Source: Acanthamoeba lenticulata
Lineage: Eukaryota > Discosea > Longamoebia > Acanthamoebidae
Direction: 5' to 3'
Assembly: GCA_002179805.1 (NCBI GenBank)
Contig: NAVB01000069.1
Location: 1 to 64,000 of the forward strand
DNA: 64,000 nucleotides
Shown: piece by piece, positions 32 through 61,980 of the stretch
Position numbering within the stretch: position 1 is the stretch's first letter
How the letters are laid out: each line of letters starts with the position of its first letter
Notes under the pieces: model-generated
Told to the model about the DNA's origin: nothing
Databases searched by the model: none
What the model saw: the letters and a program-made list of their open reading frames with translations, nothing else
Position numbers and translations under genes: made by a program

Positions 32-1451
32 ACGGACATGAACGGCTACTTCCGCCGGATGACGCTAGACATCATCTCTGAAGCCACCATGGGGCGCGAC
101 TACGGCTTCCAGCAGAAGCCGTACGCCGGCCCCATTGTCGATCCCTTCATCGGGCACACAGATGACCTTTAAACGTGTGTCTCCCACGCTTGTGCGCAGG
201 AATGACCCGGTCCTGCAGCTGATGATGAACATCTTTGAGGAGCTGAGCCACCGCGAGATCAACCCGCTCCGGTCGTTCAACCCTTGGCGCTCGTTCATGC
301 TGCACCGCAACCTCGACACCTTCACCAAGCACTGCGCCGACCTTGTCCGCAAGGAGCAGGATCGCCTCGCTGTACGTCGCTGTCTCACGAGCACCACCAT
401 CATCACCATCGCCATCACCATTTGGTCAACTGTCTTGTCCCTCTTCGCGTACCCGACTTCTCACACAAGTGGTAGGCTGAGCGGGCCGCCGGCGCCGAGC
501 GCAAGTACGAGAACGGCATCTTGTCCGTCATGCTGGGCGAGGACGAGGACGGCTCCTCCATGCCGCTCGTCCGCATCGTCGACAATATCAAGACCTTCCT
601 GTGTGTGCGCCTCCTCTTCCTTCCCTAGACTGGGACCAGCGCCAATGCTGATGACTGGTGCGTGTAGGTTTGCCGGTCACGACACGACGGCGACGCTGCT
701 GTCGTTTGCCGTGGGCATGATCGCCACCCACAAGGAGGTCGAGACTAAGCTGTTGGCCGAAATCGACGCCGTGCTGGGTGACCGCGAAGTGCCCACCCAC
801 GATGACCTCTCCCGCTTCGTCTACCTCAAGATGGTCCTCCTTCTCTCCTCTTCGACTCTTGCTTTCAAGATTCTTATAATCTTTTGCAGGTTTTGAAGGA
901 GACGCTGCGCATGTTCCCTCCAGCGGCCACCGGACGGCGGCTGCCCATGGGCTACCAGTTGGGCGAGTACGTCGTGGACTACCCGAAGACGGACGTCATC
1001 ATCTCGTCCTTTGGCGTCCACCACGACCCCGACGTACGCCCACAACATTATTCAATATTCTTATTATTCTACATTATAAAAGAAATAATATACATCCACC
1101 GTAGTAATCAAGTAAAATTAACATTAAATCAAAATAAAATACGTGCAGTTGTGGCCGGATCCGGAGATCTTCGACCCGGAGCGGTTCACGGAGGCCAACT
1201 CGAAGGGGAGGAACCCGCTGGCCTTCATCCCGTTCCTGGCGGGCAACCGCAACTGCATCGGACAGCACTTGGCCATGTTGGAGGCGACGGTGTCGCTGGC
1301 CATGGTCTACCGAAAGTTCACGTTCCGCATGGCCTACGGCCACGTCCCGCAGCTGTCGTACCGCGTCACCAACGTGTGCGCCAACGGCATGCAGGTCTTT
1401 GTATTCAAGCGCCACCCGGCTGACACCACCGCCCAGACGGCTTCGTCTTAA
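32..1451 (+). CDS. Cytochrome P450, 3' part (5' end outside window)
   Basis: Haem-thiolate monooxygenase, 332 residues visible. Exons: 32-120, 200-371, 476-600, 668-833, 890-1033, 1149-1451. Landmarks appear in the right order: I-helix oxygen-binding motif AGHDTT in exon 4, K-helix ExxR as ETLR in exon 5, the PERF-like DPERF, and the haem loop [10 protein letters not shown] carrying the Cys ligand in the last exon. The N-terminal anchor and substrate-recognition region lie upstream of the window. An acceptor at 29-31 opens the first visible exon, so the ATG at 38 is internal. The donor at 121 (GTACGCC) avoids a TAA at about 173. The substrate cannot be read. The gene is co-oriented with the next one, a PDR-type exporter. 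The P450 call is certain; the exon 1 boundary is inferred from frame. Confidence 0.92.
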
Positions 1452-2013
1452 GCCTTCTTCTTCTCTTCCAAGAATCCTCTTTGTCCTATTCTTGTGTTCT
1501 TCATCGTGGCGGCGGAAGTAAAAGTTGAAAAAGACAAAACGGAAGGTTTCTCGGATTAGCGGGAGGGAGCCCAGTGGGACGAACGAGACGAACGTCCTGT
1601 TGTGTCGTTTGTCGTTTGCTTGACGAGACCCTGCTCTGGTTGCGCGACTCTATTCTCCCGCCAAAAGCCCAGCGGTCCGATTGGCTCTTCGCAATTTTTT
1701 CGTCCGGCGAACTCACCAGGAGCCAACCAGGTTTCACTAGCCGCCAAATTCCTATTGGCGCCTTCCCTCGGGCCGGGCAACTTGCTCGCCTCGCCGAGTC
1801 ATCCTCTTTTAACCCTTCTGGTCTCGGCTCACCAGACATACGCAAAGATTCTCCTACCCCATCAGGTCTCCTCTGTACAAGCTTCTCTCCAGCAATCAAC
1901 AAGTGCTGTTGCGTGTACGAGAGTTGCCATTTCCGCTACGCTGTTTCCGAAAGCAGAGCGAGAGACCAAGCTTTAACCCAAGCTGAGCGAGTGTGGACGG
2001 AGAGGAGTACGAG
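1452..2013 (+). promoter_or_regulatory. Intergenic region, probable ABC transporter promoter
   Basis: 562 bp between the P450 stop and the transporter ATG, with no gene. Visible elements are an E2F-like CTCCCGCCAAAA at 1655-1666 and ATTGG (inverted CCAAT) motifs near 1680 and 1754. The long overlapping reading frames here match no family. Confidence 0.4.
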
Positions 2014-5000
2014 ATGGACTTGGCCCTGTCCGGCAGCCGAGCGAGCGCAGGCACCACGGTACGCACCCTGACCTTCGCACGCCTACATTCTCTTCTTTTT
2101 CTTTCCCGTAGGTCTCCGCCTCCCGCGGGTTGCACGAGACCATCGAGCTCACCAGCTCTCCCCGGGCTGCAACTTCCGGACCCCCTCCGTAACAGGATGT
2201 GGAAAGCGCGCGCTCCGGTGAGAGGCTTCTGCACCTGCCGGGTCGGCCCGACCCGGTGCCCTACTCGCAGTTCATCGAAGAGGAACGCCGACACATCAAC
2301 CCCGACTTCAAGCCCCTGTTCGCTGCCGCCCAGGGGCTCACCGTGACCGTCAATGCGCCTCCGCCCACCCACCGCCAACGAAGTGTGGCGTCGACTGTGG
2401 TCGACTTGGCCGCCAAGGTCACGCGAACCCGCCCCGCCGCTCCGAGGGACATCCTGCACGACCTGGACTTTTACCTCAAGCCCGGCGAGATGACGCTCCT
2501 CCTGGGCGCCCCCGGCTGCGGCAAGAGCGTGCTGCTCAAGCTGCTGGCCAACCAGCTCCACGTCGGGCGAGTCAAGGGCGGCGTCACCTTCAACGGCCAG
2601 GTGCCCGATCGCGACACGCACCACAGCACGGTGGCCTTTGTCCAGCAGGCCGACGTCCACTTTGCCACATTGACCGTGCGCGAGACGCTCCAGTTCAGCG
2701 CCGACTGCCAGATGCCTCCGGGCGTGAGGAAGGAGGCGAGGGAGGAGCGCGTGGAGGCCATCCTTCAGCTGCTCGGCCTCAAGCATCGCGCTGACACCAT
2801 CGTGGGCGACGCTTTGCACCGCGGCGTGTCCGGAGGCGAGAAGAAGCGTGTGACCATCGGCATTGAGTGGACCAAGTCGCCCGGCGTTTGGCTCTTTGAC
2901 GAGCCCACCACGGGCCTCGACTCCAAGGCCTCCTTCGACGTTCTGCGTGCCGTGCGCACCGTGGCCGACACCGGCGGCGCCGTCCTGGTCTCCCTCCTCC
3001 AGCCCAGCATGGAGGTCTTCCGCCTGTTCGACCGAGTGCTCATCATGACCAGGGGCGAGATCGCCTACCTTGGGCCGCGCTCTGAGGCGCTCTCCTACTT
3101 TGAGGGCCTTGGCTACAAGTGCCCGCCGCACATCAACCCGGCTGAGTTCTTGCGTAAGCGCCCTTCTCTCAGTTGATATATTTGATTATGATTTTAAATA
3201 TCAAGCTTGTGATTGCTGACCTTGACGTTGTCCATCGCAGAGGAGGTCGTGGAGTCTGCTTCGTCCCGCGACCGCTCCAAGTTCTGTCCTTCGGACGAGA
3301 ACGACGACTTCAAGTGGTTGGAGCCGCACGAGTTCGTAGAGCACTACAAGAAGTCGCCCTACTACCAGCAGGTGCTCGACGAGATCCGTCAGCATCTGGA
3401 CGACCCCAAAAAGTTCGGGGCCGACGACCAGTACGGCGACGACGACGGACAGCTGCCCCTGCCCGGGCGCGACAAAGCGCCCAAATACCCGACGCCGATG
3501 TACAAGCAGTACTGGCTGTTGATCAAGCGTGCGCTCATCCGCGAGTGGCGCGACATGGTGACCAACCGCGCACGTCTCGTGGGCACCTCCATCATGGCCT
3601 TCTTCATCGGCACGCTCTTCCTTCTCCTGGGCCACGTCCAGGTACGTCCAATCTCCCGCTTTTTCCGCCGAAGGAAAGCTGGTGACTCACCATCTTCTCT
3701 CGATCTTGCGACGCAGTCGGACGCCACGACGAGACTTGGCCTCATCTTCTGTATGCTGGCCTTCTTCACCTTTGAGTCTCTGGCCGCGCTCCCGATCGCC
3801 CTCTTCGAGCGGCCCGTGTTCTACATGCAACGCGGCGTGAAGTACTACCGCACGGCGCCCTACGTCGTATCGCACCTCATCGCCGAGGTCCCGATGGTCA
3901 TCATCGAGATCACGCTCTTCAGCACCTTCTGCTACTGGATGACGGGCATGTCCCATCTCGACGCTGGTGGCCGCTTTGGTTACTTCTACTTCATCTTCAT
4001 CATCTACTATCTGGTACGGCATGACCACCTGCTCGAGAAGATTCCTTCGAGTCCTCAACCTGACACCAACCTGTTGCTGTCGTGCGCAGACGATGAGGTC
4101 GTTCGTGCGGATGGTGACCACGTACTGCCCCTCGCTGGCCGTGGCCCAGACCGTGACTCCGCCGTGTCTGGCCTTCCTTCTGTTGTTTGCGGGCTTCATG
4201 CTGCCCCGAATGGACGTCCATCCTTGGTGGATCTGGATGTACGTCGGCCCAAAACACTTGTTCGCTGGCGCTTTTTTTTTTCTTACATTTTCGCATTTCG
4301 TTCTTTCTTCGTTCTTTGTTGGGGGCAGGTACTACGCGAACCCGACCACGTACGTCTTCCAGGGCATGATGTCGAACGAGTTCTGGGGCCAGGCCTACCA
4401 CTGCACGCAGGACGAGCTCATGCCGCCCACGACAGCGCCCAACTTTGCGGCCGCCTGGCCCGCCGGCTACTCGAGCACGCAGGTGTGCCCGATGACCGAC
4501 GGCACGGCCTACGCCATCCACAGGTGGGGCGTGTACGATCGCGAGGACATGAAGTGGGCCATGGTACCGGTCCTCATCGGGTGGTACCTCGTCTTCAACT
4601 TTGTCACCTACCTCGGCATGCGCTTCCACCGCCACCCGCCGCCGGGCAAGCCGCACATGAAGGAGGTCCTCTACAGCGAGGAAGAGGAGCGCGAGATGGA
4701 GGAGTTCAACATCAAGGACTACAGGAACAAGCAGGCCCAGGCCCAGCAGCAGCAGTTCAGCGACAGCGACGACGAGGCCAGCGGGAGCGAGGACGGCAAC
4801 GACTCGAGCTTCAGCGAGTTGATCAAGGGCGGCGCCTACCTGTCGTGGCACCACCTCAACTACACGGTGTACAACCGGTCGGGCCTGCGCAAGAAGCCGC
4901 TTCAGCTCCTGCACGACGTGTCGGGCTACGTCAAGCCCGGCAGCATGCTGGCCCTCATGGGCTCCTCCGGCGCGGGCAAGTCGACCCTCATGGACGTGCT

Positions 5001-30300: not shown

Positions 30301-33300
30301 CACAGCAGGCCGAGGTCGAGCAGCCTGAGGCCGCCAAGGAGGTGGCGACAGCTCCCGTCGTAGACTCGTGGCGACGCGCGCCTGGAGCGGCTCCGGCATT
30401 TGCCGCGGGGCGTGGTCGTCGAGGTGGCGGCCGCGGAGGAGACGCGGCGCCTCGTGGTGGCCGTGGAGGTCGTGGCCGCGGCGGCTTCGCCAGATCCGAC
30501 GAAGCTGTGGCCGCACCTGCACCGGGTGATGGCCTTCTCGGCGCTGAGCCCGGCGCCGTGAGCGATGAGGCGGCGGCCAAGAAGGAACACACAGGCAAGC
30601 ACAAGGTCTACCGGCCCAAGTCGCCCGCCCCGGCGACGGAGCCATCGAGCGCCGAGCAGACCGAGGCCTCCGGCCCCTCGACAGCCGAATCGAAGCCAGC
30701 CGACGCGCTCCTCCCGGTCCCTCAGGAGCCCGCGCCCGGCCAAGCCCGTCCTTATCACCACCACCAGCAGCCACCCCGTGATGGCAGCTTTGCCGGCGCC
30801 GGCCGTCGAGGCCGAGGTGCCGGCCGCTCCGCGCATGGTCCGCAGTCGGCCGATGGCACGACACCCGCCGATTCCGGCAGTAGTTTTGAACAGCGGAGCC
30901 TCCGAGGCGGGCGCGGTGGCGGGCGCGGGATGGGTCGTGGCGCGGGCGTCGGCCTTCGTGGACGAGGACCGGCCGGCACCGCCGCCGCTGCGTCGAGTCC
31001 AGTCTGGTCGCGCAAGGACCAGCCCGCGTCGACCGACGCCGTCGTCGCGTCAGATTCGACTCGTCGAGGCCGCGGCCGAGGCGGAGGAGTTTTGGACCAC
31101 GGCGAGTCCCGGACCCAGCAGGCGCAACCAACAACCTCAGGAGAGACGGCCAAAACCTCCGCCGAGAAGTCCGGAAGCGAAGCCATGGCGACTACCTCGG
31201 CAACGACGACAGAGACGGCCAAGCCGCCACCGACGACGACGACAACAGCAACAGAGGCCAGCAGCAAGACAACTACATCGAGCGAAGAGCGACCCCAGCA
31301 ACAACAGGCCAACAAGCTGGAGGACTTGCCCCTCGGCAGTGGCGTGGTAGTCATCACCGAGCAGACAGGCATCGAGCATGGAGCCGACCAGGGCGAGTTC
31401 ATCGCTGTGCGCTCCAAGAAGAAGGGTAAGGCCCAGGACGGCGTTGTCAACAAGCCCAACAAGCCCGCCAGCTTGGCCGCCGCCAGCAGCCAACGCATGT
31501 TCAAATCCTCCGACGCTCTGAACACGACATCGGCGGCGACTACGACGGCCAATGCCGAACCGCAGGTGCCTGGGGGCCACCACGCCAACGGGCGGCGCGA
31601 GGCCGGCAAGTTTCGGGGCTCGAGCTCCTTCACCGAGGCCACGCGATCCGAGTCGTCGGACGCCATCCTGCTCGGCAAGCCAACGCGCCATCGCGCCACT
31701 GGCGACAAGCCTGCCAAAGGTCAGCAGTTCGCCCACCGCCCATGTGGTTCGAGAGGCTCACGCGACTGTCGTGGTGTGCACAGGTGCCAAGTCTGGGAAG
31801 AAGCCGCGAGGCGGCGCGGCCGAGGGAGCCACCGCGACAGTGACGGTGACGGCGGCAGGCTCGGATGACGCCGCTAAGGCCGCCCCCTGGTCGACTCCTA
31901 CGAAGCCCGTCGTGCCCTTTGCGCAGATTCAGGCCGAGGAGCAGGACAAGCTGACGCAGACCGTCGAGGCGCCTCCCGCGCCCGTGGCCGAGGACAACAA
32001 TAGCAAGCCGCCCAAGAAGGCTCGCGGCAGCCGCAAGGACAAGAAGCGCACTACGCCCAAGTCCGAGTCAGGCGGTCCCGTAGCAGCTGCGACCAAGCCG
32101 CAGGGCCCTTCGGCCAGCCCTGTCATGGCCACGGCCCAGCCATCATCGCCCATGCCGACGACCCAAGCGGCCCCGGCCAGCCCGGCCACCACTGTCAGCA
32201 GCGCAGAGTCGGAGGGGCAGGCGGCGGCCAGCCCGGCGGTGCTCCCCCAGAGGCCTGGCGGCGCATCAACCCAGCGCAAGCGCGGCGGGGCCGAGCGGCC
32301 CTCGCAGACCGCCTCCTTCCAGCGAACTCCCAAGGCGGTTCCTGCGTCGCCCCAGGAGACTCCGGCACCGTCGCCACAGCCCACAGCTCCAGTCAAGGAC
32401 CAGACTCCCGCCGCCGCCACCGGGGCGGCGCCAGTGCCTACGCGACCCACACAGGCGTATTACCGGCCGCCCGGCAGCGGCGGACGGCCCTCGGCCGTCT
32501 CTTCGCTGGCAGCACCCGTCCGTGGCCCGTTCCAGTCGCCGGTGGTCCATCAAGGCCGGCGCCTGCCTCTGTCTACGGCCTCAACGGCGACGGCGGCAGT
32601 GCCGGCGCCGCAGCCGTTGGCGCTTTCTTTCGGATCGTTCTCGGCCGCGCAGACCATTGCCGCACCTGCGCCTGGCGCCGCCGGATCGCCCTTCCTGCCC
32701 CCGGCCCTGTTCGGGCCCGTTTCGGTTCCGACAACGACAACGACGACGCCGTCGAGCCCGATCGTGCCCACGTCGACGACGCCCACGCCCAGCAACAGCG
32801 TCAGCCCGACTCAGCCAGCAACTGGCCCAAGCAGCTCGTCCAACGGACCTCAGGCGGCCGCGGCGACGACCAGCTCCTCCACGACGACCACGCCGACGAG
32901 CGGCGGCGGTGGCATCAACGGCGCGTCGACGTTTGTGCGCCGACAGCCCAGCGGCGGGCGGGGATCGTTCTATGTCCATGACTCGCGCGGGCCCAAGCAG
33001 GGTGGCCGCGGCCGGCCAGACTACGCCAACAACGGTGTCGCTCGCGCCGCGTCGTCGAAGCCCACGCCTGCCCAGGAGATGACGCCATCATCGCCGGCGC
33101 CTTCAGCAGCAACGTCGGTGGCGCCCGTGAGTGACGGCAGCGGCAACAGCGGCAGGCGAGACCACCACGCGGCGGCTAGTCCTTCTGGGCCGTCCAAGCG
33201 GGGCGGTCGGACCGCGTCCTACGCGTCGCCCACAAACGGTCACCACCAACACCAGCCGCCGCAGTCGCCCTCTGCCGGCGGCCACCGGGGCCGAGGACGT

Positions 33301-33643
33301 GGTGGTAGTGGACGCAGTGGCGGTGGCAGCGGCGGTGGTGGCAAGTTTGGAAGCCACGCGCCGGCTTCGCCTGCGGGCGCTTTGGCGCCGGCTTCGCCCT
33401 CGCCAGCCACAGCGGCCCACCCGAGGAAGCAGCAGCAGGTGTGGCGCAAGACCCAGCGAGACGCCACTGGAGAGGTTCCTCTCATCCCTCCTTCCTCTCC
33501 TTCCTCTTCATCTTTCGTTGGTTGTCCTTATCGTGCTGACTTTATTTGGTTCTCGCCAGGGTGCGGCAACACCATCGCCCCAGACCAGCAGCAGTGCCGC
33601 GAGCAGCAAACCAGAGAACCCACCATCGTCGTCTTCATCTTGA
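27313..33643 (+). CDS. PRRC2/BAT2-like RNA-associated protein
   Basis: 1949 residues, seven exons: 27313-27418, 27525-27583, 27649-28075, 28165-28275, 28348-31719, 31784-33474, 33560-33643. The N-terminus resembles the BAT2_N domain (KFATLNLNQTYKPPKPP, then LSAREFPSLGEEPKPQ). The rest is low complexity: Pro/Ala/Thr tracts, an acidic patch, a highly charged E/K/R single-helix or coiled-coil segment of about 200 residues encoded at 29450-30130, then RGG/GRG boxes (GRGRRGGGRGGDAAPRGG), and further Pro/Ser/Gly-rich tail. Animal PRRC2 proteins bind RNA and translation-initiation factors and enter stress granules; the same role is inferred here. The frame change at 31720 is a normal 64-nt intron (G|GTCAGC to CACAG|GT). 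The large antisense frames over this gene are composition artefacts. Confidence 0.82.
29450..30130 (+). repeat. Charged E/K/R repeat region within the PRRC2-like gene
   Basis: Imperfect repeats of codon blocks for EEERKKREEE-type heptads. A coding repeat expected to form a long single alpha helix or coiled coil. Confidence 0.8.
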
Positions 33644-33987
33644 GCGAGCTGGCCCCATTAGCTAGCCCCAACCGGCCAACATCCCACCTTCTTTCCTCCC
33701 ACCTCTTCTTCTTCTTCTTACTCCCACCACGTCTTCTTCCATTCGACCGGCGCCAGGAGTGGCGCGATGTCTGTAGAGGGCAGCATCGTGTTGCCTGCCC
33801 CGCTGCATTTTTACCACTTCCTCCACACACCCACTCAACCACCGCTTCACCATGGTTGATGGTCCAGCATTTTGCTTTTTGATTCTGAACTGCAACTTCG
33901 TCCTTCTTTTACTTTTACTTCTACTTTTTTTTACCTCTCGTGCCCAGGCGGTGAAGAGACGTAGCGGGGTTGTTGGGAGACACGGCA
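33644..33987. other. Convergent 3' region, PRRC2-like and F-box genes
   Basis: 344 bp between two convergent stop codons; T/C-rich, no gene recognised. Confidence 0.5.
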
Positions 33988-35401
33988 TTACTCGCGGTAA
34001 AGGCGGTCACAATCACAGGGTGGATTGCAGAAGCGAAGCTCCGCATCACCCCGGGGCATGAGCGCGCTGCTGAAGAAGTCCTGCAGCGCCCAGCACCCGA
34101 CCAGGGAGGCCTTGTCCTCACCGAAGAGGAACGTTCTCAGCTGCTGGAATTTTTGCTTCTGTTCGTTTTCCTCGTAGCGTCTTTGTCGGTCGAACTCTCC
34201 CACGAGGTCTCCCGTGCCTGTGGATAGACGTGCGGACGGAAAGGGTTTAGACCAGGAACAGCTCTCCTTGTTCTTCGTCACATTGGACTGGCTTCGTACC
34301 TCTCCACTTGCAATCAACAAGAGTTGAGTCGTAACCATCACGACTGTGCTCAAATGTCATGTTCAGTGGTAGGCCTGAAGCCAAGCTGTAGATTGTGATT
34401 GAAACTGTACGTGTCGTCCAACGGTCATCATTGTCCCTGAATGTCAAGGTCAAGGTCGATGTCAATGGTTATGGATTACTTGAGAGGAGGGTCATGCTGA
34501 CATACTCCGAGATCTCACTGTAGTAAAGATTGTTGTACAGGAGCGCCAGCAAGCGATACACTTCCTTACTTTTCTTGAAGCGTCTCTTCGACTCTGTGCC
34601 ATGCAGCACCTCCCTGAAAGAAAAATTTAAAAATAAATAAAATGACAAATGGCAGAGCATTTTGTAACAAAAAATAGAACGTGATGTACCTCCAGTTTTT
34701 AAAGAACTCTTGGCCTCTCAAACGCAGTGTTGCCACGTCGGCTAGCTGCTGTAGGATGGAGTCTGCCTCACTTACCTCGCTCTTAACACTACTAAGATCG
34801 TGCTTATCAGGCAGTATGTGAGGAGCCACCACAGGAGCCAGCTCTTTATCTTGCCTGGCTCGCTTCTTCTTCTGCTTCTTTTCTTTCTTCTGTTTCTTCA
34901 TTCTCTTCTTGTCCCTTTTTTGTTTCTTCTTCCTCTTTTTTTTGTCCTTCTCCTCTTCCTCAACTTCCTCCTCACTATTCTCATCATCGTCATCCTCAAA
35001 ATCATCTTCAACGAACTTGGCCAACACCGTCGCTCGTTGAAGGGCCGCGACGACGTCCATCATCCTTGCTTTCTTATTACCTACCACATTTATGCAGCTC
35101 GCGTAAGGACAAAAAACATAAAATAAATACAATAAAAAAAAAACCAGGAGTGGCGAGTACAGAGGCGGAGGAGTGCCAGGCGGTCCAGTGCCATCTTTCT
35201 CCAGTCGGCTTGCACACTTGGCACCTGGGTCGGATCAAGGGGAGGTGGCCAGGAGTTGAAGTAGACGCGCCGCCACAGGCTCAGTGTCTTGTCCTTCTGC
35301 ATACGGCGCCATTGCTTGCACACCTGGCCAGCACGCAAGAGGTCCACAATGCCCAGCCAGCCCCACACCTCGACTAGCATTTCCACGGGCAGTGCGTCCA
35401 T
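33988..35401 (-). CDS. F-box protein
   Basis: 357 residues, exons 35401-35161, 35080-34690, 34613-34539, 34436-34300, 34217-33988. The first 50 residues are an F-box (MDALPVEMLVEVWGWLGIVD, then AGQVCKQWRRM and LWRRVYF), which would dock on SKP1 of an SCF ubiquitin ligase. A strongly acidic stretch (EDDFEDDDDENSEEE) and a long Lys/Arg run (KKKRKKKQKRDKKRMKKQKK) follow, suggesting nuclear or nucleolar targeting. The C-terminal 150 residues, which should bind the substrate, match no domain I know. The third intron is the weakest part: the donor at 34538 was chosen because it alone keeps the frame into DNDDRWTTRTVS. Confidence 0.72.
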
Positions 35402-35655
35402 GCTGAAGGAGAGAGACAGCAATGCAGCAGGGGAACTGATTTATTCTTCTTTGGCCATTTTCGGAGCTTGGACAGTTTTGAAATAAACTGAGAATTTTAC
35501 ATCCACTGAAAAATTCCCAACTTGGGGCCAGACACTCAAGACTCGCGGTCGGGCGCAAGTGTGGAGAAGAAGCCACAGGCCCAACTGAACGAGTCGAAAG
35601 TTGCTGTTTGTACAACGGCCGCGAGGCGTTCGTCGACGGGATTCACGAGATACGT

Positions 35656-38678
<3,023 letters not shown>

Positions 38679-57732: not shown

Positions 57733-60700
57733 TCAGACAAAGATGGCGACAGCGAAGGCCTTGACGTTGGGGCCGAGATCGCGCACGCTGCGCCAGTATT
57801 CGACGGCCGTGGCGTGCTCGCCCTTGTGGAGGGAGAAAAGGAAGGCCTTCTGCTCCTTGGTGAAGCGCGCGATGGCCCGCGCCAGCTCTCGGCGGTCCTC
57901 GATGTGCCGCACCCCGGCGTGGAGGCCATCGATCGCCGCGAGGAACGCGTCCAAACGCGCTTGCACGTACGTCAGCCAGTGGGCCCACTGGGGCACGCAG
58001 GCGCAGAAGCGGCGGACAAGCAACGGGTCGTCGTAGAGGTCCTTGAGCACGCCGTAGAAGAGCCGCTGCTTCTGGTTAAAGGGCAGGTAGACGTCGAGCT
58101 CTTCCATGGTCGCATAGCGCCGGCCGTTGAAGGTCACCCGCTGCATTCGGCTGTCGCACGCGACGAGTCCCTCGTAGGCCAGCCAGCTTCCTGGCGCCGC
58201 CGCGTGCATGGCGTCGCACACGCTCTGGACCAGCGCCATGAGTTCGGCTTGTTGGGCCAGTTTGGCCTCTCGGGCCTCGTCGTCGCCGAGCTCGTTGTAG
58301 CGGCGGAGCCCCGCGGCAAAGGCCGGCGTGGCCCGCAGTGCCGCGTCGTCAATGGCAAACTCGGGCTGGCCGATGTGCTGCCAGCCGTGCCGCTCGGCCA
58401 CAGCCGCCAGCGCCGCAGCGTCGGCCTCTCGCATGGCGCCGCTCAGATCGCGCGCACCGACGGCCACGATTCGCTCGGCGCGCTCATCGACAATGGTGCC
58501 GCCAGCGTCACGGCACCACTGGAGGACAAACATGAAACACTGCGGCCGCTCCGCCGCCTCGGCCGTCGAGGGTAGGCGGTAGCCGAGCCGAGCCCACACC
58601 TCCCAAAACAGACGCGCGATCTCTTCGCTGACCTGCGCCCTCACTCGGCCCGCGTCGACGTGCTGACCGCCCGCTTGGCGCAGCTCGCGTTCGAGGTCGG
58701 CGCGCACTCGCCACTCGAGCTGGCGGCCCATCAGATTGTTGCCCACGTAAGTCGACACCAGCCACCGGCCGTCGTGCAGGAACAGGTTGACCGTGGGCCC
58801 ATTGAGCTTCTCTGCAGGGACAAGGCGAGATGAGGGCTCGAGCCGAGGCACGGGACACAGAGGAGTGGAAGCAGGGAAGGGGGGCGGTACTGGTCAACAC
58901 CACCGAGTCCCAGTCGAGCAGGGGGAGGTGCTCCTCGGCGCTCTCGGCCGACACGAACCTGCACCGGAACCACACCAGCAGAACAGCGGTGAGTAGGCGA
59001 GCCCAACAGAGCTCTGGTGGCGCCCCGTACCGCTTGAAGCCATAGCACACAGGCCGCCAGTCATCGGAGGCGTCCAGGACGAGGCCTGCAGGAACCGGGC
59101 CATATGGCCAGGATTATCAGCCAAGCCAGCGCAAGCCCACGGGCTGGATGGGGCACGAACGAACCACAGCACTGGTCGGCGGCCTTGGACTGACGAGGCG
59201 CGTAGTTCGGGTCGAGAGCGAGCTGAACCAGGTCCTCCGCCTCACCCGGGACGCGGGCGCTCAGCACCGACAGCTCCAGTTCCAGCTCGTCCAGCGACAG
59301 CCGGCCTGTGTGGTGCGCCTGAGCCCAGCGCATATGTCCGACGTGGCGGAGGGCCAGCAGCGTACCGTCACGCTCGAGCTTGCACCGTTGCTTGATGTAG
59401 TCTCGCACGTAGACCTCGCGCGGGTCGGCCTCGTCCTCCCTGCTCCAAGCCCGAACGGTCAGTCGATGCACCGCACCAAGGCCAGACAGAGATGGGTCGA
59501 GTCCACACCTGATGACGCGGAGCGGCGGGGCGGCGGCCTCGGCGGCCTCGATGAAGGGCACCAGCGCGGGAATGGCCTTGTATCGATCGATGGGCAGCGG
59601 CTCGCTGTTGATGGGCGAGTGGAACTGCACACAGGTGTTTTTCACGCCGCGTGGTGAGTCGTCAGTCGGGATGCGAGCCATGTCGGGAGGGCTCGAAGGT
59701 CCGGGATGAGGACGCCATACCTTGTAGCAATTGACGACGGCGCGGAAGGCCTCGTCGAGGTGATACCTGCCGAGGGAACGCGTGCGCTCGCGTCAGTGCT
59801 GTAGCTGCCGGCCAGCGGGAGTACGCGCGTACTCTTTTTCATAGAGCCAATCGCGGGCCTTGTCCTGGTGATCAAAGGTGAGGCCATCGAGCTCTTGCTT
59901 GTACTTGTTGCCAGCGGTGAAGTCGTACACGACGCCCTTCTCGAGGATCTGCTGCGCAAACTCTGCAGACGCGCCACAACATGAAAATAAATGTAAAAAA
60001 ATTAATCAAAAATCATGAATAAAGCGTCGTCGGGGAAGAAGGTACCGAGGACGCGCAGCGGGTGGACGACGATCTTCTTGCCCTTGGCTTGTTTGCCTTG
60101 CTTGAAAAGCCGATAGGAGATCTCCTCGTGGGCGCCCTTGAACTTGTCTACCTCGTGTTTGAGCTTCATGAAGCTGAGCTCGAAGCGGAAGGCGCCCGGC
60201 GAAAAAGGCTTGATCACAGCAAAGGCCGGCAGCGAGAGCGACGAGACGGCCCTGTGGTCGACGATTCATGTGGCCGCGTGAGGAGTGGCATGCCACGGGG
60301 GACATACGGAGCCGAGCGTACGGGACAAAGTTGCGGTCGATCAAGTACTGCCAGTGGTGCTTCACCACGGAGTGCACGTCCACCATGACGTCACCCACCT
60401 TCTTTTCTGTCAGTTGCTCTGGCACGCCTGTGGGAGAAAGTCGCTCTGCTCAGCCCACGACGACAGTGACCATCACGAGATGCAGGCAACAGCCACGTGC
60501 CGCCGTCGGGGATGTCAGGACGGGCCAGCACGCCCACGTAGTCCTCGAGGATCACGTAGATGTCCCAGTCTGCGTGGGCCAAGTCAGCAGTGGGAGACCC
60601 GGGTTTGGTGTACAAGTGGAGAGGGCTGCAAAGACTGACCTGAGTCGGGCCGTGCGGTGCCGTAGAGGCGCGAGCCATAGCTGCACAGTTAATGGGACAG

Positions 60701-60847
60701 AAAGCCACATGTGAGGGGGGAGCTTGCACCCGTCGCGGGGTAAGGCTAGTACAGGAAAGCAAAGCTAATGCCAGCGGGTTCAACACAGAGCCATTCGCAC
60801 AGAGTGGCCACATCCACCGGGCAGACAGCCAGTGCCGCTTCCTCCAT
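57733..60847 (-). CDS. Nucleotidyltransferase fused to T4 Rnl1-like RNA ligase
   Basis: 769 residues, 12 exons: 60847-60753, 60680-60640, 60569-60477, 60427-60322, 60251-60046, 59962-59833, 59766-59721, 59624-59509, 59439-59165, 59085-59031, 58958-58891, 58811-57733. The N-terminal third is a minimal nucleotidyltransferase: LYGSRLYGTARPDSDWDIYV gives the GSxxxGT...SDxD site (Asp46, Asp48), with a possible third acid in GDVMVDVHS. The C-terminal half looks like a phage T4 Rnl1-type ligase: LVLDASDDWRPVCYGFKRF before the site, motif I KLNG (Lys412 as predicted AMP acceptor), motif III-like RPQCFMFVLQ and ERIVAVGA, motif IV YEGLVACD, and downstream lysines (FNQKQRL). The fused activities suggest RNA end healing or tRNA repair. 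No organelle signal. Ligase identity rests on motif order and is less certain than the nucleotidyltransferase. Confidence 0.72.
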
Positions 60848-60989: not shown

Positions 60990-61980
60990 TTACTCATCGA
61001 TGGGAGCCTCGGCCGCAGAGGGCGAGGCCTTGTCCTTATCGTCGCGCGCGGGCGAAGGCGACCTCGACTTCTTGGCTGCCGGCGAAGGCGACCTGGAGCG
61101 CGACTTGTCCTTGTCGTCACGCGCGGGCGATGGCGACCTTGATTTCTTGGCTGCCGGAGAAGGCGACCGCGAACGCGACCTGTCCCTCGAGCGAGACCTG
61201 GAGCGTGGCGACTTGTCTCGCGGAGGCGTCCTCGAGCGCGACCTGTGACGGCGTGGCGAAGGACTGCGCGAATGGCGGGAGCGCTTGTGCTTACGGTCCT
61301 CAGAATCGCTGCGCGAGCGAGAGCGGGAGCGAGAGCGAGAACGCGAGTAGGAGCGCTTCCTGCGTCGACGACGGTCATCGTCACTGTCTGAATCATATCG
61401 GCTGCTGTGTCGGCTACCACGGCTGCTATAGCGGTCGCCGGAGCTCCGTCGATTGGCGCCCTCGACCTTCAGAGCACGGCCGTCCAGCATTTCGCCGTCA
61501 AGTTCACGGCAGGCCCAACGAGCATCAGAGCTCCTGTCATTGATGCACAAACATTAACATTAACAAATGGTCGAACTAATAGTGATTCATGCAGCATAAT
61601 TGTGGAATTTAGAAAATTTGGCAGCGCTGATCAAAGTGATTGGTTGGTGATTACGGTCAGAGAGAGCGGCGGTGCCATCTCATCCAGCACACGACCGTGC
61701 GTTGCCCAACCGTGCCACCGGTGAAACCAAACCAAACCACACCGACTAATCACAACCGAACAGCTGCACCATGTTTCTAGCTGTTCAAGGGATGAGTTGC
61801 AGCTGCAAAGAAGAGAATCGTGCGGCAGTACCTATCGTATTCGATGAAAGCGTAGCCCTTGCCATACGGGTGGAACACACGCCTAATGGGGCCAGCCTCG
61901 TCGAAAACACGCTCAAGATCACGCGTGCGGGTTTCGTAGTTCAGGTTGCCCACCCAGATTGTGTACTTGTCCGTGCTCAT
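60990..61980 (-). CDS. SR-type splicing factor (RRM plus RS domain)
   Basis: 230 residues, exons 61980-61832 and 61533-60990. An N-terminal RRM starts MSTDKYTIWVGNLNYETR, with RNP2 IWVGNL and RNP1 KGYAFIEY, and ends RELDGEMLDGRALKVE. From residue 80 the protein is an RS domain: RSYSRSRSRSRSRSRS, then repeated PSPAAKKSRSPSPARDDKDK units, ending AAEAPIDE. SR proteins bind exonic enhancers and recruit U1/U2AF in the nucleus, a fitting factor for a genome with so many introns. A single RRM with this spacing is like SRSF2/SRSF3/SRSF7 or plant SC35-like factors; I cannot choose between them. The single intron of 298 nt is one of the longest here and splits the RRM. Confidence 0.92.

What the first reader, a model, noticed from the sequence alone, without database searches (positions are those of the whole stretch)
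57733..60847. Nucleotidyltransferase fused to an Rnl1-like RNA ligase: candidate RNA-repair enzyme
One 12-exon gene joins a GSRLYGT...SDWD nucleotidyltransferase to a ligase with motif I KLNG, pre-motif I block and motif IV EGLV. Eukaryotic RNA ligases (Trl1, RtcB, Naegleria Rnl5) do not have this layout as far as I recall. The pair could rebuild and reseal damaged tRNA or other RNA ends, perhaps after attack by bacterial or viral nucleases in an amoeba host. All 12 exons close in frame over 770 codons, supporting a single gene.
Basis: partly seen in the sequence, partly recalled or inferred. Interest (0 to 1): 0.78.

Follow-up and report, generated by a model that had tools for sequence, protein, structure and literature searches.

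The report
Nucleotidyltransferase fused to degenerate RNA ligase
An amoeba gene joins a domain predicted to add nucleotides to a second domain shaped like an RNA ligase that has lost key sealing residues; it is one of at least fifteen such genes in this genome, which suggests the amoeba turned a repair enzyme into something else.

Summary
The gene is real and one fused frame, but not quite as described. It runs 60847-57733 (minus), 12 exons, 761 codons, since intron 3 looks GC-AG. The N half is a Pol-beta/RlaP-like nucleotidyltransferase with D46, D48, D85. The C half is a T4 Rnl1-type ligase fold: HMM E 4.4e-36, 0 of 1000 shuffles reported; the predicted fold puts K404 on known catalytic lysines. 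The ligase site is eroded: motif III Glu is V498 and both motif V lysines are gone. At least 15 such fusion loci exist in this genome; 0 of 15 keep all five residues K,E,E,K,K, against 2 of 2 stand-alone ligases of the subfamily. Selection still constrains the gene between two near-identical copies (pN/pS 0.18). The nucleotidyltransferase site is uneven across the family too: D-x-D in 14 of 15, third acid in 6 of 15. Most likely a nucleotidyltransferase using a dead or crippled ligase as RNA-binding part, with intact ligases doing the sealing. Function is inferred; no activity is shown. No database protein with the whole fusion was found, within limited sensitivity.

The parts
57733..60847 (-). 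whole coding region, 12 exons, 761 aa (ATG 60847, TGA 57735-57733)
   Evidence: matched by the near-identical copy on C916 from 6127 (L017)
60753..60847 (-). exon 1 (aa 1-32)
   Evidence: GTACTA...GTGCAG intron follows
60640..60680 (-). exon 2 (aa 32-46), GSRLYGT and first base of the first acid of SDWD
60501..60569 (-). exon 3 (aa 46-69); followed by a probable GC-AG intron (60500-60428)
   Evidence: P0121 lacks the 10 residues of the GT-AG alternative
60322..60427 (-). exon 4 (aa 69-104), third acid D85
60046..60251 (-). exon 5 (aa 104-173)
59833..59962 (-). exon 6 (aa 173-216)
59721..59766 (-). exon 7 (aa 216-231)
59509..59624 (-). exon 8 (aa 232-270), end of the nucleotidyltransferase half
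59165..59439 (-). exon 9 (aa 270-362), linker and start of ligase N-terminal region; donor uncertain
59031..59085 (-). exon 10 (aa 362-380), pre-motif I block (GLVLDASDDWRPVCYGFK)
58891..58958 (-). exon 11 (aa 380-403)
57733..58811 (-). exon 12 (aa 403-761 and stop), ligase core and C-terminal helical domain
58807..58809 (-). K404, motif I lysine (KLNG): kept
58525..58527 (-). V498, at the place of the motif III glutamate: lost
58171..58173 (-). E616, motif IV glutamate: kept
58126..58134 (-). T629-F630-N631, at the place of motif V K-x-K: both lysines lost

Best explanation
The protein is a Pol-beta (RlaP-like) nucleotidyltransferase joined to a T4 Rnl1-type ligase that no longer performs the whole ligation cycle. 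The ligase fold is kept under selection as a module that binds RNA ends or nucleotide, and it positions an RNA 3' end for the nucleotidyltransferase, which adds one or more nucleotides. Sealing, where needed, is done by the intact stand-alone Rnl1-type ligases that the genome also encodes. Shown by sequence and model: the fused frame, the ligase fold, the Pol-beta motif, loss of catalytic residues here and across the family, selective constraint. Inferred: RNA as substrate, nucleotide addition as the chemistry, docking as the ligase half's role, sealing by other proteins.
For: Nucleotidyltransferase half: Pfam Polbeta 3.5e-7 and NTP_transf_2 9.5e-5, both over cut-off, and phrog_388 nucleotidyltransferase 1.8e-6. 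D46, D48 and D85 are all present here. D-x-D is read in 14 of 15 fusions, GS and D-x-D together in 13 of 15. An exon of one fusion's nucleotidyltransferase (C166/C1369) passes the RlaP cut-off (25.4 against 23 bits). Ligase half: canonical-ligase HMM 4.4e-36 and fold match. Erosion: five catalytic columns kept in 24 of 70 aligned cells against 181 of 319 in the other 24 conserved columns, while two core glycines and the motif III phenylalanine stay (15 of 15, 13 of 13, 15 of 15). Both stand-alone ligases of the subfamily keep K,E,E,K,K, and a more distant Rnl1-type ligase (C78) shows motifs that look intact by eye. Constraint: ligase half pN/pS 0.21, p 3.5e-5; pooled over six other fusion pairs 0.39, p 3.8e-7. 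One locus pair (C1483/C60) joins the nucleotidyltransferase to what seems only the C-terminal ligase domain. RlaP enzymes are predicted to work beside RNA ligases (PMC7824862, passages read).
Against: K404 and E616 are kept, so some adenylylation is possible: an active-site mutant of human RLIG1 (E250A) was still partly adenylated (PMC11494293, passages), Rnl2tr K227Q still joined pre-adenylated ends (PMC3149579, passages), and a Diplonema ligase with predicted rewiring of its ATP contacts has been proposed (PMC4599027, passages). The erosion is not specific to the five: other conserved polar positions are kept in only 76 of 175 cells, non-polar ones in 105 of 144. The third acid of the nucleotidyltransferase is Asp in only 6 of 15 fusions (Asn in 6, other in 3), so nucleotide transfer cannot be taken as the role of every member. 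The window's N half scores below the RlaP cut-off (15.8 against 23 bits) and its structure model failed (pLDDT 32). No activity, expression level or substrate was measured.
Confidence: 0.47

Rival explanations
1. One reading: a bifunctional RNA repair enzyme that restores lost nucleotides and then ligates the ends itself.
For: Both halves are present and K404 and E616 are kept; RlaP and RNA ligases are predicted partners in phage repair (PMC7824862).
Against: Motif III Glu and both motif V Lys are lost here; 0 of 15 fusions keep all five residues while 2 of 2 stand-alone relatives do.
Confidence: 0.13
2. A partial ligase: it no longer carries out the full cycle but still holds AMP on K404, or performs only the last step on RNA that another enzyme has already adenylylated.
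For: K404 and E616 kept; Rnl2tr motif V mutants still join pre-adenylated ends (PMC3149579); 6 of 15 fusions read K at motif I.
Against: 7 of 15 fusions have another residue at motif I (I, D, Y, R, C, M, Q) and 2 could not be aligned there, so this is unlikely to be the family-wide role.
Confidence: 0.14
3. The nucleotidyltransferase modifies a protein, like the MntA antitoxin, and the ligase-like half chooses the target.
For: NCBIfam MntA match 3.2e-6 over 29 residues, but 27 bits against a cut-off of 60.
Against: The match is limited to the shared catalytic loop; the ligase half points to RNA; a HEPN partner was not looked for.
Confidence: 0.08
4. An RNA-end sensor: the ligase-like half recognises broken or foreign RNA and switches on the nucleotidyltransferase to make a signal nucleotide.
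For: Expanded family on long branches with D-x-D kept in 14 of 15 and an eroded ligase, a pattern known from immune sensors (general knowledge). PADLOC candidate-defence models match the catalytic loop (PDC-S09 2.5e-5 and 5.8e-4, PDC-M05A 0.018, about 30 residues each).
Against: Those matches are short and may only reflect the shared Pol-beta loop. No link to infection was tested. No match named as a cyclic-nucleotide synthase came up. The third acid is lost in 9 of 15 fusions.
Confidence: 0.1
5. A pseudogene or assembly artefact.
For: Catalytic residues lost.
Against: Intact 12-exon frame in both copies with pN/pS 0.18, p 2.5e-8; intron-free relative P0121 of the N half.
Confidence: 0.03

Closest known systems
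T4 Rnl1 family, Pfam PF09511 (RNA_lig_T4_1); nearest named relative P0001, 'RNA ligase (ATP), putative' of Acanthamoeba castellanii Neff, and the stand-alone C9/C365 ligase
   Same: Sequence profile, order of motifs, predicted fold, C-terminal helical region.
   Different: Fused to a nucleotidyltransferase; motif III Glu, motif V Lys-x-Lys, the pre-motif I Arg and two other near-invariant positions (Asn, Ser) are lost; below Pfam's reach.
RlaP (PF10127), RNA ligase-associating Pol-beta nucleotidyltransferase
   Same: Pol-beta motif and partnership with an Rnl1-type ligase; one paralog exon passes the RlaP cut-off.
   Different: Window copy under the cut-off; the partner ligase is in the same chain and degenerate; the family is expanded in a eukaryote.
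Fungal Trl1 tRNA ligase and Naegleria gruberi RNA ligase
   Same: Adenylyltransferase fold, among the top structure matches; by recall Trl1 also has K-x-N-G at motif I.
   Different: By recall those are active ligases with other partner domains and none has a Pol-beta domain.

Membership tests
T4 Rnl1 family (PF09511) | homology over the ligase domain | tested here: met
   HMM of 108 canonical ligases, 120.5 bits, E 4.4e-36 in two stretches (320-551 and 598-746), 0 of 1000 shuffles reported
T4 Rnl1 family (PF09511) | Pfam curated cut-off | tested here: not met
   no match for the C half at E <= 10; stand-alone relative C9 matches at 8.6e-21 and fusion C1506 at 2.9e-7
T4 Rnl1 family (PF09511) | covalent nucleotidyltransferase fold with lysine at motif I | tested here: met
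T4 Rnl1 family (PF09511) | motif III glutamate | tested here: not met
   V498; Glu in 99% of 108 canonical ligases
T4 Rnl1 family (PF09511) | motif IV glutamate | tested here: met
   E616
T4 Rnl1 family (PF09511) | motif V K-x-K | tested here: not met
   T629, N631; Lys frequency 1.0 (two decimals) at both columns in 108 canonical ligases
T4 Rnl1 family (PF09511) | ATP-dependent RNA ligation | not testable with these tools
   needs an assay
RlaP (PF10127) | Pfam curated cut-off | tested here: not met
   15.8 of 23 bits, E 0.011; paralog exon C166/C1369 passes with 25.4; 4 of 10 family nucleotidyltransferases match at E <= 0.1
RlaP (PF10127) | Pol-beta GS...DxD and third acid | tested here: met
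   G34 S35, D46 D48, D85 by position in the window protein; third acid Asp in 6 of 15 fusions only
RlaP (PF10127) | association with an RNA ligase | tested here: met
   same polypeptide, though the ligase is degenerate
RlaP (PF10127) | fold of the nucleotidyltransferase half | tested here: inconclusive
   model of P0121 from 5 rows failed, pLDDT 32.2

The most novel reading that the evidence does not exclude
A lineage-expanded family of at least 15 amoeba proteins in which an Rnl1-type RNA ligase was turned into a catalytically silent RNA-end sensor that steers or switches on a fused nucleotidyltransferase, as a defence or RNA-surveillance system.
Probability: 0.13. Interest if true: 0.85.

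Novelty: new variant of a known kind. Interest (0 to 1): 0.6.

Why it matters
Nucleotidyltransferases and RNA ligases are known as separate partners in RNA repair. Here they are one chain, in many copies, and the ligase half has lost residues needed for sealing in every copy read while staying under selection. If confirmed, it is a family of pseudo-ligases and a way to ask what an RNA ligase fold is good for apart from ligation, in an organism that hosts giant viruses and intracellular bacteria (general knowledge).

Tried and rejected
Protein database: the single-protein search found nothing; the 7-member fusion alignment found only P0121. Both scored only about 8000 word-sharing candidates, so absence elsewhere is weak evidence. 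Viral contigs: none. Bacterial and archaeal genomes: 1 locus, an Acidobacteria MAG, 29 residues at the catalytic loop, not followed. Phage records: none for the N half at E <= 0.01. PDB by sequence: none at E <= 1. NCBIfam gave one more weak match in the ligase half, a mannosyl hydrolase model at 0.12, taken as chance.

Considered and dropped: the GT-AG intron 3, replaced because of P0121; the active bifunctional ligase as leading view. My notes call the FEL block motif IIIa; PMC3149579 and PMC11494293 place that Glu in motif III, and the report uses that.

Literature: nine searches ran. From the titles and abstract starts listed (20 of 26 papers, 20 of 28, 19 of 20, 5 of 6, all in the others) none is about this fusion or a pseudo-ligase family in Acanthamoeba. 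The 2016 Nucleic Acids Research paper on RNA repair systems that I recalled was asked for by a DOI from memory and is not held; it may already mention eukaryotic fusions, I cannot tell. Papers were seen only as passages found by terms.

Full report
What is there. The gene runs from 60847 to 57733 on the minus strand. A near-identical second copy on contig C916 of the same genome keeps the donor and acceptor dinucleotides of all 11 introns of that model. Indels lie in 6 of 11 introns and in 1 of 12 exons (3 bases, in frame). The only database match to the fused family, P0121, comes from a contig of at most 1165 bases and is 75% identical over 253 residues. It reads without interruption across the places of introns 1-7. 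At intron 3 it lacks ten residues, so the donor there is probably a GC at 60500, giving 761 codons. P0121 ends in residues unlike exon 9, which looks like a retained intron 8; that it stems from RNA is my inference.

Selection. Between the two copies there are 28 synonymous and 16 nonsynonymous differences, pN/pS 0.18, binomial p 2.5e-8. The ligase half alone has 18 and 12, ratio 0.21, p 3.5e-5; the nucleotidyltransferase half 6 and 4, ratio 0.20, p 0.013; the linker 4 and 0 (which counts two double-change codons step by step, unlike). Over six other fusion pairs the pooled ratios are 0.22 (nucleotidyltransferase) and 0.39 (ligase), p 3.2e-9 and 3.8e-7; single pairs range from 0.23 to 0.77 in the ligase half. 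That count used aligned blocks of 15 or more residues with at least 60% local identity, so the worst-agreeing stretches are left out. I treat the pairs as alleles or haplotigs; recent duplicates are possible.

Nucleotidyltransferase half. Pfam Polbeta 3.5e-7 and NTP_transf_2 9.5e-5 pass their cut-offs, RlaP at 0.011 does not. The matches cover only the catalytic loop. PADLOC candidate-defence models match the same loop weakly. The helical region after it (KGKKIVVHPLRVLEFAQQILEKGVVYDF) is shared by the family. Of 10 family members scanned, 7 match NTP_transf_2, 6 Polbeta and 4 RlaP at E <= 0.1. In the genome-wide RlaP search the exon of one fusion, C166/C1369, passes the cut-off, beside other RlaP hits at C664/C1093 and C883/C215. 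As read, D-x-D stands in 14 of 15 fusions, GS in 14 of 15, and the third acid is Asp in 6 of 15 (window, C890, C618, C100, C216, C1403), Asn in 6 and something else in 3. The window copy has all three acids, but the family as a whole does not, which counts against a uniform transfer activity. The structure model of P0121 failed for want of an alignment.

Erosion of the active site. In 29 columns that are at least 90% identical in the 108 canonical ligases, the window protein keeps K404 and E616 and loses motif III Glu (V498), both motif V Lys (T629, N631), the Arg of the pre-motif I block, and the Asn and Ser of two other blocks. Across 15 fusion loci the five catalytic columns keep the canonical residue in 24 of 70 aligned cells, against 181 of 319 in the other 24 columns (Fisher p 8.7e-4; cells of related genes are not independent). 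The control within that set matters: non-catalytic polar columns are kept in 76 of 175 cells, non-polar ones in 105 of 144, so what is lost is polar conservation in general, catalytic residues included, while the core stays. Kept of five, per locus: window 2, C890 0, C618 3, C100 2, C185 1, C683 1, C1506 3, C141 3, C254a 1, C254b 1, C166 1, C66 1, C216 0, C817 3, C1403 2; stand-alone C9 and C550 5 and 5 (five cells in C254b, C166 and C216 were not aligned and count as not kept). A more distant Rnl1-type ligase at C78 shows motifs that look intact by eye.

Family census. Protein searches of the own genome led to 32 fetched stretches, read with my spliced aligner. Merging near-identical pairs gives 15 fusions, 1 nucleotidyltransferase with what seems only the C-terminal ligase domain (C1483/C60; ligase-profile scores 121 and 100, against at most 59 on reversed DNA and 75 on one opposite strand), 4 nucleotidyltransferases without a clear ligase (C1063/C575, C153, C368/C1271, C454; scores 48-61) and 2 stand-alone ligases (C9/C365, C550) whose nucleotidyltransferase-profile scores (47-53) stay under the reversed-DNA maximum of 65. 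Models of C683 and C216 are poor. The profile was built from the window protein, five paralog models, four more nucleotidyltransferase pieces and five canonical ligases, so paralog scores are flattered; the window model was made by hand, except that the exon 9 donor follows. Hits at C664, C1093, C883, C215, C825, C35, C1320, C1078 and C155 were not read, so the counts are lower bounds. A FastTree of 125 ligase domains groups all 15 fusions with one other protein (P0033) at support 0.725, on long branches; the window's nearest relative is C890 (0.91). A single origin of the fusion is plausible, not shown.

Mechanism. Published work on T4 Rnl2 places motif I Lys on AMP, motif III Glu on the ribose and motif V Lys on the phosphate. 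The second motif V Lys is required for adenylyl transfer, while strand joining of pre-adenylated ends survives its loss (PMC3149579, passages). In a viral RLIG1, mutation of motif III Glu, motif V Lys and others reduced autoadenylation and ligation (PMC11494293, passages). By that standard the window protein should be unable to run the full cycle, though AMP loading or last-step joining cannot be excluded. Three acids of a nucleotidyltransferase next to an eroded but constrained ligase fit an RNA-modifying enzyme with a pseudo-ligase docking module. Phage RlaP is predicted to restore nucleotides beside RNA ligases (PMC7824862, passages), which makes RNA ends the natural first substrate to test.

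Organism. The genome (48.5 Mb in 1825 contigs) is unnamed. Exon identities of 61-91% between the C9/C365 ligase and the Neff protein suggest an Acanthamoeba relative other than Neff; this is inference.

Novelty. Both domains are known and their partnership is known. The fusion, its expansion and the loss of ligase residues were not found in the databases and papers searched (limits in Tried and rejected).

Noticed in passing
L021 about 2300-3300 (C9): Pieces just upstream of the stand-alone ligase look like a SIR2-like domain (SIR2_2 at 0.3 and 0.13 in two neighbouring pieces, below cut-off; the same call also gave TAFH 7.9e-4 and Gelsolin 0.058, both below cut-off).
   Followed up: partly
L035 and L036 (C1483, C60): A nucleotidyltransferase joined to what seems only the C-terminal helical domain of the Rnl1 type.
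   Followed up: partly
C254, about 579-3006 (-) and 32398-35673 (+): Two different fusion genes on one contig.
   Followed up: no
L050 (C78:28900-30300) and L051 (C588:54100-55500): More distant Rnl1-type ligases; the C78 one has motifs that look intact and lies in an open frame reported as 2428 aa.
   Followed up: partly
   Followed up: no
window 60990-61553, minus strand: Frame rich in RS repeats beside the gene, like an SR splicing factor.
   Followed up: no
window 60500-60428: Probable GC-AG intron; two differences between the copies that looked like amino-acid changes fall inside it.
   Followed up: yes
fusion loci: The third acid of the nucleotidyltransferase is Asn in 6 of 15 fusions but Asp in 4 of 4 nucleotidyltransferases without a ligase.
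   Followed up: no
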